Source: Methylovulum sp. (lineage in GTDB: Bacteria > Pseudomonadota > Gammaproteobacteria > Methylococcales > Methylomonadaceae). From it: DNA of 64,000 bases. The notes below the pieces were generated by a model that was given only the letters and a program-made list of their open reading frames with translations, made no database searches and had not been told where the DNA came from. The stretch covers positions 62,001 to 126,000 of the forward strand of contig NZ_JAQTZU010000005.1 of assembly GCF_028687615.1 (NCBI RefSeq). The letters run 5' to 3'. Of this stretch, positions 40,473 through 53,067 are shown piece after piece. The translations under genes and the position numbers were made by a program. Position 1 is the first letter of the stretch. Every line of letters begins with the position of its first letter.

Positions 40473-43400
40473 ATGAATAACCGTGTTGCACTGATAGCTT
40501 ATTCCGTGCGTTTCCCAGGCACAGATACCCAACGATTCTGGGGCGATTTGCTGGCTCAAAAAGATTTGGTCACGGGTGTTGATCCAACACGCTGGTGCCA
40601 AGATACCTTCCTTCATCCCGACAAGCGCCATCCCGGCACCAGCTACAGTTTTGCAGCAGGCAGTATCGGCGATATTTCCGGTTTCGATGCCGCTTTTTTT
40701 GGTATCTCCCCCCGTGAGGCGACGCTGATAGATCCCCAACAAAGGATTTTGCTGGAACTGGTCTGGGAAACGTTTGAAAATGCGGGCATCATCCCGTCGT
40801 CGTTACGGGGTAGTGACTGCGGGGTGTATATTGGTGTTTCCAATGTCGATTACGCCTATCGAATGCTTGATGACCTTGCGGCGATAGAAGCTGCTGCGGC
40901 AACTGGCATCATTTCCAGCATTGCCGCCAACCGTATTTCTTATGTCTTCGATTTGCATGGCCCAAGCATTTCTATGGATACGGCCTGCTCTTCATCTCTA
41001 GTGGCATTCCATCAGGCTTGCCAAGCCATACGTTCAGGGGAAATCAGCCTGGCCTTGGCGGGCGGCATCAACCTGCACCTGCATCCTTGCGCGTTTGTTT
41101 CATTTTCAAAAGCGACCATGCTATCCAAGAGCGGGCATTGCCAAGTTTTTGGTGAAAATGCTGATGGTTATGTCCGCTCTGAAGGCGGTGGCCTGTTCCT
41201 GCTTAAAAATTATGACCAGGCTATCGCCGACAATGATCAAATTCTCGCCGTAGTTGCCGGTAGTGCCATCAACACCGACGGGCATAAAACCGGACTGACC
41301 ATCCCTAACCCGCTCGCGCAAGCGGCATTAATGGCTGCGGTCTATGAGAAGGCAGGGATAGACCCTGGCACGATTGATTACTTTGAGGCGCATGGCACCG
41401 GTACAGCCGTCGGCGATCCTATCGAAACCCACGCCATTGGTTTGGCCTTAGGGCAAAAAAGGACCCAACCTTTGTTAATCGGTTCGGTGAAAAGCAACTT
41501 GGGGCATTTGGAATCGGCATCAGGTGTCGCTGGTTTGGCGAAGGCATTGAATTGTCTAAAACATCGCGCAATTCCGGCAACAATTAGTGCTAAAAAACCG
41601 AACCCTAATATTAAATTTGCGGACTGGAATATCCGGGTGGTCACCGACACGCTCCCGTTAAAAGCCCAAGGCGAGTTGACCATCGGTATCAATTCGTTCG
41701 GTTTTGGCGGTGCGAACGCCCATGTCATTTTACAATCACCACCAACACCTAAGCCTCTGAAAAAATCGCCGGGGCAACTTTCGTCAACTCCCGCCCTACC
41801 GCTAATTTTATCGGCTAAAGATCAGCCTGCACTACAACAATCGGCGCAAGAACTGGCTGATTTTATTGCCGAAAATCCAGGGCGGCCTTTTTACGATTTG
41901 GCGCATAGTGCTTTTTTTAACCGTGAACGCCATCCCCACGGCATAGCGGTTTTTGCCGCAACCCCTGAAGAAGCTATCCAGCAGTTCAAGCATTTCGCCA
42001 ACCAGCAATCCCCACCAGATAAAAATCAAGCCACTGCGCCCCGCGCTTATAAAGGAACGCATCTTGCCGATGCCAAAGGCCCGGCTTTTGTGTATTCAGG
42101 CAACGGTTGCCAATGGCAGGGCATGGGCAAGCAATTGCTGGAACAATCGCCTGTTTTTCGCCGTGCCGTCAGTGACGTGGACGCACTGTTTCAAAACTAT
42201 GCAGATTTTTCCTTGCTAGACGAACTGGCAGGTCGCAATGGCGCAGGCCGTTACCAACGCACTGAAATTGCCCAACCGGCATTATTTGCTTTGCAAGTGG
42301 GCATTACCGAAGTGTTGCGGGAACATGGCTTCCAGGCGGCCGCCGTCATCGGCCACAGCGTCGGCGAAGTGGCGGCGGCATGGGCCAGTGGTGCGTTGTC
42401 CCTAGCCGCCGCCGTTAAAGTCATTTATTACCGCAGCCATCATCAAGGCAAAACCCAAAGCTCAGGCGGGATGACCGCCGTGGGCCTTAATGCCGAGGAT
42501 ATGGGCAAACTGCTGGCGGACAGTGGTTTAGATGAGGTTTGTCTGGCGGGCGTCAACAGCCACCGGGGCGTGACTATTGCCGGGGACGTGGCGCAACTGT
42601 CCCAGATTGAAAGCCAATTGGCGGCCAATAATACGTTTTTTAAACGTCTGGATTTGGATTACGCTTTCCATAGCCCGGCAATGGATACCATCGAAGCAGG
42701 TGTGCTCTCGGATTTGGCGGAACTTGCCGTCAATGAACCAGCAATCCCATTTTTCTCGACGGTTACCGGGGACTTACTGCTGGCGGACAAGCTGGATGCA
42801 CAGTATTGGTGGCACAATATCCGCAAACCGGTACAGTTTGACAGCGGGGTCAATGCCTTGCTAGCCACCGGCATCAACACCCTGGTCGAAATCGGCGCAC
42901 ATACGGTCTTGCAAGCTTATTTGCATGACTGCCTCAAAGCAGGCAGCCACAACGGTATCGTGGTTCCGACCATAAAGCGCAACAATGATACGGCGGCGCA
43001 ACTTTTAAACAGCACGGCACAATTGATGATTGCCGGTGTTGAATTCAATCATAAACGCTGGTTTCCGGTAACCGGGCAATTTATCGGCTTGCCCAACTAC
43101 CCCTGGCAACGGGAAAAACTGTGGCATCCGGTCACGTCAGAATCGCAAGGCTTGCTTTACCGTACCAAAAACCATCCCTTATTAGGCTACGCTTTAAAGC
43201 AACACGCGCTGATTTGGGAAAACCAGTTGGATACCCAGTCACACCCTTTTTTGGCGGATCATAACGTCGGCGGGGCGGTGGTTTTTCCTGGAGCGGGTTT
43301 TGCTGAGTTGGCACTGGCTGCCGCACATCAGGCCCATGCCAGCGATTTTATTGAAATTGAAGATCTGGAAATCCGCTCGCCACTGCTTCTCAGCCATGAT

Positions 43401-51549: not shown

Positions 51550-53067
51550 ATGATGGTCTCTCTCGTTTTGCCGCCGTTAATCGCAAGTATCATCCTATCC
51601 TTCCCACTGGAACAATGGCTGGTCCCCAAACCGCTACCCGTCTGGCGGCGTCCCACGGCAGCGGCATTCCTACATATCGGTCTCTGGAGCGTCTGCTTCG
51701 CCATCTTGCTATTATTGCTGCAACGCCCGTGGTTTGCCGTTGTGAATCTATTGGCATTCCAACTATTATTACTCTTGGTCAATCAAGCCAAATATGACAG
51801 TTTGCGCGAACCGTTCATCTTCCAAGATTTTGAATACTTTACCGACGCCATCAAGCACCCCAGATTGTATTTGCCTTTTTTTGGCATCGCCCGGACTATC
51901 GCCGCAACAATTGGCTTCGTTAGCGCGTTTGTTATCGGCCTAGTCTTGGAAACCCCGCTGACCGACACGCTAACAACACCTGTTTTTATCCTGCTGTCCG
52001 TGCTGCTGGCTGGAATTGGCCTGCAATTGGTTCGTTTCAGCTTAAAAAACTGTCCGGCTATCACCTATAATCCTGCCGAAGATTTAATCACGTTAGGACA
52101 ACTGGCTTTTTTTTGTTGCTATTGGAATAAGGAGCGGATAACCCGGCAACTGGAACATGGCAATTCGCCTTTTCAATCCCCGATTACACAGCCAGCCCAA
52201 GCCCTGCCACATATTGTCGTGATCCAAAGCGAATCATTTTTTGACCCGCGCAGCCTGTCAACCAACATCAAAGCGTCAGTCCTGGAACAATACGACGCCA
52301 CCCAAAGGGAATCCTGCCAATTCGGACGCTTGCAAGTCCCTGCCTGGGGAGCCAACACCGTCCGTACCGAATGCGGATTTTTGACCGCCCTAACCCCCGA
52401 ACAAATGGGCATACACCAGTTCAACCCCTACCGTTTGCTGGCAAACCACAGCATCCCGAATCTAGCGGGCCACCTTAAACAAGCGGGATACCGGACGCTT
52501 TGCATCCATCCTTACCACAGCACTTTTTACCTGCGCAATAAAGTTTTTCCGCGTATGGGATTCGATGGATTCATCGACCTAAGCAGTTTTGACGAAGCGC
52601 AAAAATGCGGGCAATTCATCGGCGATTTGGCGATTGCCGACAAAATCCAAGAATTGCTAAATGCCGAATCCGAACAACCACTGTTCATCTTCGTCATCAC
52701 GATGGAAAACCACGGCCCCTTGCATCTTGAACAACCCAATCCCGACACGCTGGAACAGTGTTATCACAGCGCACCAGAACAAGCCTGTGATGATTTGACA
52801 GTCTATCTGCAACATCTGCAAAACGCCGATTTGATGATAAAGCAGCTCAAGGACAAACTGCTGGCCAACCAACGTGAAGGCTTGTTATGCTGGTTTGGCG
52901 ACCATGTGCCGATTATGGAGAATATCTACCAACGCTTTGGCGAACCGGACGGCTTGACGGATTATTTTGTTTGGAAAACGTCAGGGAAAAAAGCGGGGAA
53001 TTTGGCAGATAAGCAAGATTTGGCGATACACGAATTGGCGGCTTTATTACTAAAATTATGCAACTAG
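51550..53067 (+). CDS. LTA-synthase-like membrane sulfatase-fold enzyme (RkpI-like)
   Basis: 505 residues. Four to five membrane helices in the first about 170 residues are followed by an alkaline-phosphatase/sulfatase-fold domain. IQSESFFDP, GANTVRTECGFLTAL (candidate Thr nucleophile), IHPYHSTFYLRNKVFPRMGFDGFID, ITMENHGPLH and WFGDHVPIM match the metal and catalytic blocks of LtaS/OpgB-type phosphoglycerol transferases. Such enzymes move phosphoglycerol or phosphoethanolamine onto extracytoplasmic glycans or lipids. The upstream gap is 82 bp with a weak ribosome site at ATG 51550 or 51553. It ends 9 bp from the convergent NAD-kinase-like gene. Confidence 0.88.
   Translation: MMVSLVLPPLIASIILSFPLEQWLVPKPLPVWRRPTAAAFLHIGLWSVCFAILLLLLQRPWFAVVNLLAFQLLLLLVNQAKYDSLREPFIFQDFEYFTDAIKHPRLYLPFFGIARTIAATIGFVSAFVIGLVLETPLTDTLTTPVFILLSVLLAGIGLQLVRFSLKNCPAITYNPAEDLITLGQLAFFCCYWNKERITRQLEHGNSPFQSPITQPAQALPHIVVIQSESFFDPRSLSTNIKASVLEQYDATQRESCQFGRLQVPAWGANTVRTECGFLTALTPEQMGIHQFNPYRLLANHSIPNLAGHLKQAGYRTLCIHPYHSTFYLRNKVFPRMGFDGFIDLSSFDEAQKCGQFIGDLAIADKIQELLNAESEQPLFIFVITMENHGPLHLEQPNPDTLEQCYHSAPEQACDDLTVYLQHLQNADLMIKQLKDKLLANQREGLLCWFGDHVPIMENIYQRFGEPDGLTDYFVWKTSGKKAGNLADKQDLAIHELAALLLKLCN

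What the first reader, a model, noticed from the sequence alone, without database searches (positions are those of the whole stretch)
40473..53067. PKS / oxoamine-synthase / SDR / capsule / LTA-synthase-like operon: a probable sphingoid-like lipid anchor for surface polysaccharide
Seen: five same-strand genes, with overlaps PKS-AONS, AONS-KpsS-like (ATGA) and KpsS-like-SDR (TAATG). The PKS carries every reducing domain but no thioesterase; the next gene is an intact PLP oxoamine synthase, and the SDR has all catalytic residues. Known: rkpAGHIJ of Sinorhizobium encode the same families and are needed for K-antigen capsule; fungal Fum1/Fum8/Fum13 use PKS + oxoamine synthase + SDR to make sphinganine analogues. 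Inferred: the ACP-bound saturated chain is released by decarboxylative condensation with an amino acid, reduced to an amino alcohol, and then glycosylated (KpsS-like) and/or given a phosphoglycerol-type head (LTA-synthase-like). In a gammaproteobacterium this would be a little-described lipid-anchor pathway. Gene order differs from rhizobia, with the KpsS-like gene moved inward.
Basis: partly seen in the sequence, partly recalled or inferred. Interest (0 to 1): 0.88.

Follow-up and report, generated by a model that had tools for sequence, protein, structure and literature searches.

The report
Sphingoid lipid anchor genes for capsule
Five neighbouring genes in a bacterium of the methane-oxidiser order look like a kit that builds a sphingolipid-like fat and joins it to the inner end of a sugar capsule; the kit is a new member of a gene set already known from rhizobia, Burkholderia and Pseudomonas, but the link between its fat and the capsule has not been proved.

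Summary
The five genes are real and as described, apart from one doubtful overlap. They are a new member of the rkp-1/wcb/SgaAB kind: an iterative PKS (KS-AT-DH-ER-KR-ACP), an alpha-oxoamine synthase (AOS), a KpsS-type beta-Kdo transferase, an SDR and a GacH/LtaS-type phosphoglycerol transferase. Sinorhizobium meliloti has the same five families in a row. In Pseudomonas the homologous pair (SgaAB, published 2025) makes C24-C28 sphinganines and probable phosphoglycerol sphingolipids. Across 201 Methylococcales genomes the AOS goes with strong KpsS matches (24 of 25, against 3 of 176); the phosphoglycerol transferase occurs only with it (14 of 25, against 0 of 176) and switches together with one KpsS subtype. 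Best reading: a polyketide-built sphinganine gets a phosphoglycerol head, mimicking lyso-phosphatidylglycerol, and KpsS puts the first Kdo of a capsule on it. The sphinganine part rests on homology to a tested pair; the anchor and the order of steps are inferred. The SgaAB paper's main text does not mention capsules, yet 13 of 14 Pseudomonas SgaAB-like pairs examined lie beside KpsC and a phosphoglycerol transferase. The older proposal of a lipid anchor (rkp-1) and the new sphingolipid chemistry seem to be one pathway.

The parts
40473..48101 (+). Iterative type I PKS, 2542 aa: KS 3-423, AT 539-857, DH 901-1174, degenerate MT-like region between DH and ER, ER about 1815-2113, KR 2142-2318, ACP 2424-2488; no thioesterase found
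48104..49432 (+). PLP alpha-oxoamine synthase (SgaB/RkpG-like), PLP Lys295; the ORF runs from TTG 48098 (numbering from there), orthologues favour ATG 48104
49429..50700 (+). KpsS-type retaining beta-Kdo transferase; PF05159; Q240 and D244 invariant in 17 aligned KpsS proteins, a Q-x3-D motif like that around D160 of KpsC
50700..51467 (+). SDR, 255 aa, probable 3-ketosphinganine reductase (PfSgaC role)
   Evidence: role by analogy
51550..53067 (+). LtaS/GacH-like phosphoglycerol transferase: about five N-terminal membrane helices, then alkaline-phosphatase-type domain with E228, T270, D451-H452

Best explanation
The operon makes a polyketide-built sphingoid lipid and starts a capsule on it. 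(1) The PKS builds a saturated, unbranched long acyl chain on its ACP (inferred from domains; C24-C28 products are shown for the Pseudomonas homologue). (2) The oxoamine synthase releases the chain by decarboxylative condensation with an amino acid, most likely L-serine, giving 3-ketosphinganine (shown for PfSgaB; inferred here). (3) The SDR reduces it to sphinganine (inferred). (4) The LtaS/GacH-like enzyme transfers glycerol-phosphate, probably from phosphatidylglycerol, to sphinganine, giving a single-chain phosphoglycerol lipid that resembles lyso-phosphatidylglycerol, an acceptor of ordinary KpsS (inferred; about 0.5 for this order). (5) KpsS adds the first beta-Kdo, the KpsC-like protein encoded elsewhere in the genome extends it, and the capsule is built and exported by KpsMT-type machinery (inferred).
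Against: No lipid or capsule of this organism has been analysed. The LtaS-like catalytic domain should be periplasmic (five helices, as in LtaS, recalled), while KpsS works in the cytoplasm, so step 4 before step 5 needs a lipid flip. 11 of 25 AOS+ Methylococcales lack a clear LtaS-like gene, so that head group cannot be universal, and KpsS-SDR-LtaS may simply travel as a linked cassette; only 3 independent switches, sign test p 0.25. Type-A KpsS without LtaS in view occurs in Bordetella/Achromobacter loci, and type-B KpsS with LtaS in L070, L073, L074, L091. 6 of the 56 longer named loci show only PKS and AOS in view. S. meliloti 1021 poly-Kdo was reported to carry a phospholipid anchor (Fraysse 2005, seen only as a reference title). 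KpsE was not found in this genome at E 1e-6 (the query's identity is itself weak); the ATPase beside the KpsM-like gene scores best with teichoic-acid and galactan export models, all below cut-off; KpsC-like and KpsM-like genes are unlinked to the operon. Five other Methylococcales have a PKS-AOS pair of another type and no PF05159 match, and four of those five AOS fall inside the 128-row AOS group. The best NCBIfam model for the AOS is BioF (345.2 of 426.5 bits), ahead of SPT. The 10 solved proteins that match the SDR at E 1e-15 are FabG-type or other SDRs, none named KDSR.
Confidence: 0.6

Rival explanations
1. The operon makes free sphinganines and phosphoglycerol sphingolipids that act as membrane lipids or secreted metabolites, as reported for P. 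fluorescens MYb115; capsule genes are only linked neighbours.
For: Free sphinganines and probable PG-sphingolipids were detected and tied to host protection, with no capsule mentioned in the main text. Five Methylococcales carry another type of PKS-AOS pair without PF05159; no kps gene is annotated in the 25 kb around the Planktothrix fusion; 6 of 56 longer named loci show only PKS and AOS.
Against: Co-occurrence with KpsS is near complete in Methylococcales (24 of 25) and KpsS lies inside the operon. rkp-1 mutants of S. fredii HH103 are KPS-deficient, and rkp-1 is required for secretion of poly-Kdo in S. meliloti 1021 (review PMC4881576, passages).
Confidence: 0.15
2. The sphingoid is the capsule anchor, but KpsS acts on it directly and the LtaS/GacH-like enzyme decorates the lipid or the polysaccharide with glycerol-phosphate in the periplasm after export.
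For: Predicted topology; nearest solved homologue is GacH, which modifies a polysaccharide (recalled); 11 of 25 AOS+ genomes have no clear LtaS-like gene, and 10 of these 11 have a KpsS.
Against: LtaS presence follows the KpsS subtype with one change on the KpsS tree among 27 Methylococcales rows. MYb115 makes free, probable phosphoglycerol sphinganine, so the head group can be put on without any polysaccharide.
Confidence: 0.2
3. The PKS lipid is a carrier or signal needed for capsule secretion, while the capsule itself hangs on ordinary (lyso-)phosphatidylglycerol.
For: A review describes rkp-1 as making a lipid carrier involved in secretion, and rkp-1 as needed for secretion of poly-Kdo; a phospholipid anchor on S. 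meliloti 1021 poly-Kdo is cited (title only).
Against: KpsS, the enzyme that acts on the anchor, is the gene that goes with the PKS-AOS. A '+154 Da' phosphoglycerol sphinganine could pass for a phospholipid anchor in an early analysis (inference).
Confidence: 0.1

Closest known systems
rkp-1 region (rkpAGHIJ) of Sinorhizobium meliloti
   Same: Same five families in one row. Identity to the window: PKS 32% over 1425 residues (38% in the best piece), AOS 49%, SDR 27%, LtaS-like 27%, KpsS 37%. Proposed lipid anchor/carrier for a capsule
   Different: Gene order: KpsS is last in S. meliloti, third here. S. meliloti KpsS belongs to the other KpsS subtype. Gene names rkpA/G/H/I/J are mapped by order and recall; the record does not carry them
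PfSgaAB(C) of Pseudomonas fluorescens MYb115 (PMC12134224)
   Same: Iterative PKS plus oxoamine synthase plus SDR; serine-using AOS shown; sphinganines and probable PG-sphingolipids
   Different: No capsule or phosphoglycerol transferase gene is mentioned in the main text. The MYb115 protein sequences were not at hand; other Pseudomonas orthologues (62-64% AOS identity) stand in
wcb capsule cluster of Burkholderia (WcbR-type PKS)
   Same: PMC3908369 calls wcb and rkp orthologous clusters with PKS and capsule export genes (passage); Burkholderiaceae loci here show LtaS-PKS-AOS together
   Different: Burkholderiaceae loci add an LpxC-like deacetylase and a GNAT beside the AOS; absent here. No annotated wcb cluster was compared directly
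E. coli/N. meningitidis group 2 capsule initiation (KpsS, KpsC on (lyso-)PG)
   Same: KpsS and KpsC-type beta-Kdo transferases and a KpsM-like permease; acceptor would be a single-chain phosphoglycerol lipid, like lyso-PG
   Different: Lipid made by a dedicated PKS-AOS-SDR route instead of from glycerophospholipid
Fungal fumonisin/sphingofungin clusters (PKS, oxoamine synthase, KDSR)
   Same: Same chemical logic (named in PMC12134224)
   Different: Eukaryotic; the fungal proteins were not compared here

Membership tests
rkp-1/wcb capsule-lipid module | Monomodular reducing PKS next to an oxoamine synthase | tested here: met
   PKS found with AOS in 78 of 80 named loci and 26 of 28 Methylococcales loci
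rkp-1/wcb capsule-lipid module | SDR, LtaS/sulfatase-like and KpsS genes in the same row | tested here: met
   S. meliloti row
rkp-1/wcb capsule-lipid module | AOS groups with RkpG-type proteins and not with SPT or BioF | tested here: met
   (group of 128 rows support 84; the wider 131 split from 3 outgroup rows 100*); HNS motif in 127 of 134 rows.
rkp-1/wcb capsule-lipid module | Genes needed for a surface polysaccharide | not testable with these tools
   needs mutants
PfSga sphingolipid pathway | AOS condenses an acyl thioester with L-serine | not testable with these tools
   shown for PfSgaB; orthology to other Pseudomonas proteins only
PfSga sphingolipid pathway | PKS-AOS pair of the Pseudomonas type | tested here: met
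   PKS 49%, AOS 64% to the Pseudomonas plasmid pair; the MYb115 pair itself was not compared
Retaining beta-Kdo transferase (KpsS/KpsC/WbbB) | Fold and catalytic Asp | tested here: met
KpsS equivalog (NCBIfam NF050054) | Score over the curated cut-off of 600 bits | tested here: not met
   282 bits: a KpsS relative, not the equivalog
Canonical bacterial serine palmitoyltransferase (NCBIfam) | Score over the curated cut-offs | tested here: not met
   293.2 of 640 bits (NF047600), 269.4 of 500 (NF047599), 202.6 of 670 (NF047603); it may work like an SPT without being in that family
8-amino-7-oxononanoate synthase BioF (TIGR00858) | Score over the curated cut-off of 426.45 bits | tested here: not met
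   345.2 bits, the best-scoring model but under its cut-off
LtaS/GacH phosphoglycerol transferases | Alkaline-phosphatase-type domain with Glu, Thr, Asp-His aligned to GacH | tested here: met
   alignment; E228, T270, D451, H452 invariant in 11 of 11
LtaS equivalog (NCBIfam NF053595) | Score over cut-off of 970 bits | tested here: not met
   35.1 bits; not a true LTA synthase
Swf sponge-symbiont PKS | HATGT, and DPQ followed by I or V | tested here: not met
   HGTGT and DPQQR in the window PKS; definition from PMC3908369 (passage)

The most novel reading that the evidence does not exclude
SgaABC, rkp-1 and wcb are one pathway: a PKS-built very-long-chain sphinganine, capped by a GacH-like phosphoglycerol transferase, is a mimic of lyso-phosphatidylglycerol and is the true lipid anchor of a widespread class of Kdo-linked capsules. 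Two head-group variants exist, each with its own KpsS subtype: KpsS type A with the phosphoglycerol transferase, and type B without it in Methylococcales. The 'secondary metabolite' sphingolipids of Pseudomonas are then spare capsule anchors.
Probability: 0.4. Interest if true: 0.78.

Novelty: new member of a known kind. Interest (0 to 1): 0.58.

Why it matters
The papers I could read leave the chemical nature of the rkp-1 lipid open, citing work of 1993 and 1997. Joining it to the sphinganines of SgaAB gives an exact, testable structure for a capsule anchor: sphinganine-phosphoglycerol-Kdo. It would mean that many Proteobacteria not thought of as sphingolipid makers carry sphingoid lipids on their surface, and it names a candidate for the missing head-group enzyme of the Pseudomonas pathway, the LtaS/GacH-like gene of the same cluster.

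Tried and rejected
Chance or mis-annotation of the operon: rejected, neighbours are conserved in relatives. AOS as BioF, Kbl or canonical SPT: below every curated cut-off and outside the three such rows in the tree. True LTA synthase: rejected (35.1 of 970 bits). Swf-type PKS: rejected by motifs. PMC13410964 (E. coli K96) was seen in passages and is about ordinary group 3 capsules; its polyketide hit is irp1.

Weak or dead ends: KpsE in this genome was not found, but the query's identity as KpsE rests on a weak Wzz match under its cut-off, and my label 'KpsE|L074' is doubtful (no family found; a related ORF reads like a glycosyltransferase), so KpsE counts are not used as evidence. Poly_export genes at two other places were not tied to this capsule. 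A structure of the LtaS-like protein and a direct Foldseek run could not be queued. The KpsS sequence alone found no solved relative at E 0.01; the profile gave KpsC at E 0.005 and WbbB-type chains at 0.011. Papers of Kiss 1997 and Muller 2009 are not held.

Searches for a paper joining sphingoid lipids, KpsS/Kdo and this cluster. In the listings I saw none, but several listings were cut (20 of 1,801, 25 of 833, 20 of 306, 10 of 20, 15 of 32), the library holds open-licence PMC papers only, and I read listings and passages, not every paper.
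Full report
Where it is. The window is bases 62001-126000 of contig C15 of a 3.49-Mb genome in 56 contigs. 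I place it in the gammaproteobacterial order Methylococcales by its relatives: G197 (same genus) and the record L077, named Methylococcaceae, share a 46,532-base contig and identical AOS rows; G193 (same family) and L083 likewise at 70,344 bases. The genus name was not established.

The observation. All five genes are there. The PKS has KS, AT, DH, ER, KR and ACP with intact motifs and no thioesterase in the Pfam list. Between DH and ER lies a stretch like a methyltransferase whose SAM-binding glycine motif is degenerate in 7 of 7 PKS compared (the canonical motif is recalled), so an unbranched chain is expected. Overlaps ATGA and TAATG are real; the PKS-AOS overlap probably is not.

Homologues. 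In a S. meliloti Ak57 record the row is PKS, AOS, SDR, an unannotated ORF, KpsS, then KpsF on the other strand; the unannotated ORF is LtaS/sulfatase-like. This is the rkp-1 layout; the rkp names are mapped by order and recall. Identities to the window: PKS 32% over 1425 residues in one piece (38% in the best piece), AOS 49%, SDR 27%, LtaS-like 27%, KpsS 37%. A Pseudomonas plasmid has PKS 49%, AOS 64%, KpsS 47%, SDR 55%, LtaS-like 45%, plus two KpsC-size PF05159 proteins, KdsA, KdsB and KpsF. A Paraburkholderia plasmid has KpsS-SDR-LtaS-PKS-LpxC-AOS beside an ABC permease and ATPase.

Distribution in the order. In 201 Methylococcales genomes 89 have some match to the AOS at E 1e-60. 59 of these have only 34-40% hits, in the range of BioF/Kbl-type enzymes. 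30 have a closer one: 25 at 59% identity or more, and 5 at 45-53% (G185, G084, G127, G152, G195). All 12 genomes of the window's genus in that draw are among the 25. PF05159 occurs in 36 of 201; 27 have a match under E 1e-60. Of the 25 AOS+ genomes 24 have such a strong match (the miss, G182, has its AOS on a 3.5-kb contig), of the other 176 only 3 (G109, G075, G046); Fisher p about 1e-26. Counting weak matches too it is 24 of 25 against 12 of 176. The five genomes with the 45-53% AOS have no PF05159 match and no kps genes in the stretch seen; their PKS-AOS seems to be another type. These p-values ignore relatedness among genomes. The thresholds (59%, 1e-60) were set after seeing the lists. 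In 28 AOS loci fetched, the exact order of the window occurs in 7 (L041, L043-L045, L050-L052); KpsS is seen in 17, SDR in 13, LtaS in 9, and many stretches are cut by contig ends.

The phosphoglycerol transferase. The window's LtaS-like protein at E 1e-20 occurs in 14 of 201 genomes, all 14 within the 25 AOS+, 0 of 176 others including the three with strong KpsS but no AOS at E 1e-60; p 3.5e-15. Among strong-KpsS genomes alone the difference (14 of 24 against 0 of 3) is not significant, p 0.10. 11 AOS+ genomes lack it; a search of those 11 with the S. meliloti protein found only one weak match, in G100 (E 8e-7), while G000 and G028 as controls rang and G109, G075, G046 did not. Its closest solved relatives are GacH (E 3.7e-16) and LtaS (E 3e-8), with the Glu, Thr and Asp-His positions aligned to GacH and invariant in 11 of 11 orthologues. 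About five hydrophobic segments precede the domain (my reading of overlapping windows), as in LtaS (recalled), so the domain should face the periplasm.

KpsS subtype and LtaS move together. On a tree of 63 KpsS proteins the LtaS label needs 1 change among 27 Methylococcales rows (24 AOS+ and the 3 AOS-) and 5 among all 63 (shuffled mean about 17). For the other rows the label means 'seen within the fetched locus', so some 'none' may be false. On the AOS tree of 23 of the 25 genomes (G182, without KpsS, and G120, with a short AOS, left out) the two labels coincide in all 23 rows, need 4 changes, and give 3 independent pairs on supported branches, 3 of 3 the same way (sign test p 0.25). Of the 12 genomes of the window's genus 9 have KpsS type A with LtaS and 3 (G122, G189, G197) type B without. 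The rule is not universal: L070 (S. meliloti), L073, L074 (Shinella) and L091 (Accumulibacter) lie on the type-B side with an LtaS-like gene, and L079, L084, L092 (Bordetella, Achromobacter) and L130 (a 5-kb contig) on the type-A side without one in view. Either KpsS reads the head group, or the genes travel as a cassette.

The AOS. In a 134-row quick tree it lies in a group of 128 (support 84; a 131-row branch has 100*) with S. meliloti, Burkholderiaceae, Halomonadaceae and a 19-row Pseudomonas clade, apart from BioF-like L004, a Bacteroidota protein and an alphaproteobacterial one. Four of the five other-type Methylococcales AOS fall inside the 128, near the Planktothrix and Streptomyces fusions, so this group is not capsule-only; long branches are flagged. 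The motif around the PLP-stacking His is HNS in 127 of 134 rows, HAS in L004. The best NCBIfam model is BioF, under its cut-off; the best solved relatives are serine palmitoyltransferases. In Planktothrix one protein holds KS-AT-DH-ER-KR-ACP-AOS, in Streptomyces KS-AT-ACP-AOS: support for hand-over from ACP to AOS.

The published chemistry. PMC12134224 (abstract, sections 7, 8, 9, 15 and passages read): PfSgaAB of P. fluorescens MYb115 makes C24, C26 and C28 sphinganines; PfSgaB uses serine; an SDR (RS19775) is proposed as reductase; compounds 154 Da heavier are most likely phosphoglycerol sphingolipids. Glycerol-phosphate adds 154.003. In the main text the words 'capsul', 'rkp', 'wcb', 'LTA synthase' and 'sulfatase' have 0 hits, and the sections read name no head-group enzyme; supplements were not seen.

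Joining the two. 15 of 298 Pseudomonas genomes have the AOS at E 1e-120. I fetched 14 of the 15 (G212, already seen as L099, left out). KpsC and LtaS-like lie beside PKS-AOS in 13 of 14, SDR and KpsS too in 11 of 14; L196 is cut by the stretch's end, L193 lacks SDR and KpsS, L197 has none in view. In the annotated plasmid the order after the AOS is PhyH, KpsC, GNAT, LtaS-like, SDR: the SDR is the fifth gene. In MYb115 the locus tags run RS19800 (AOS) to RS19775 (SDR), also five steps. I infer, without having seen the record, that MYb115's cluster has the same genes, and that RS19780 is the LtaS-like one.

Wider survey. PKS is in 78 of 80; within what each locus holds LtaS-like 37, SDR 32, KpsS 26, KpsM 17, KpsT 17, KpsC 13, KpsD 11 (best-hit labels at 45 bits, lower bounds since flanks are at most 10 kb; 56 of 80 loci are 19 kb or longer). 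6 of those 56 (L088, L089, L100, L104, L105, L124) show only PKS and AOS. In G197 the PKS is on another contig (67% identity).

Mechanism and order. Known KpsS puts Kdo on (lyso-)PG (PMC7694667, passages), and KpsMT binds a PG-Kdo terminus (PMC11041684, passages). Phosphoglycerol-sphinganine is a single-chain phosphoglycerol lipid, so it could enter the same machinery. The weak points are the topology of the LtaS-like enzyme, its absence in 11 of 25 genomes, and the reported phospholipid anchor in S. meliloti 1021 (reference title only).

Known or new. The anchor idea for rkp-1 is old (PMC3557214, passage; PMC4881576, passage); the sphinganine chemistry is from 2025. A 2025 review of capsule attachment has 0 hits for polyketide, sphing or Sinorhizobium (PMC12220298, passages). 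I found no paper joining the two in the listings. The locus is a new member of a known kind; the joining of the two literatures, the phosphoglycerol transferase as head-group enzyme and the KpsS/LtaS switching are the new points, all inferred.

Noticed in passing
L199:5605-13203: Planktothrix agardhii plasmid p3: KS-AT-DH-ER-KR-ACP-AOS fused in one protein, between GT39-type genes and a fatty acyl-AMP ligase, no kps genes annotated in view.
   Followed up: partly
L200:8311-13134: Streptomyces anthocyanicus plasmid: KS-AT-ACP-AOS fusion without reducing domains in the Pfam list, near an MMPL transporter and an LCP protein.
   Followed up: no
L063-L067: Five Methylococcales PKS-AOS loci of another type (AOS 45-53%), without a PF05159 match in the genome; product unknown.
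   Followed up: partly
L071: A mobilizable Pseudomonas plasmid (MOBP relaxase, trb genes) carries the PKS-AOS with KpsC, LtaS, SDR, KpsS, KdsA, KdsB and KpsF genes.
   Followed up: no
L072:17037-17951: In Burkholderiaceae an LpxC-like deacetylase and a GNAT sit beside the AOS (each in 8 of 80 named loci); perhaps N-modification of the sphingoid.
   Followed up: no
L077:11169-13806: Polyphosphate kinase split over two ORFs between AOS and KpsS in UBA662/G197; the PKS is on another contig.
   Followed up: partly
L193:14314-16427: A Pseudomonas locus with a short LtaS-like match running into KpsC, lacking SDR and KpsS; looks like a deletion.
   Followed up: no
L069:4913-6085: The KpsC-like protein of the window's genome has one Kdo-transferase domain (390 aa), while others of the genus have open frames of about 615-724 aa with two matches.
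   Followed up: partly
L070: The S. meliloti Ak57 record is labelled plasmid pSymB but is 3.72 Mb long and carries the rkp-1-like row, which a paper places on the chromosome; the label may be wrong.
   Followed up: no
window 53077-55020: Two minus-strand genes downstream of the operon (308 and 336 aa) not examined; by eye one resembles NAD kinase and one an SPFH/band-7 protein (reading only).
   Followed up: no
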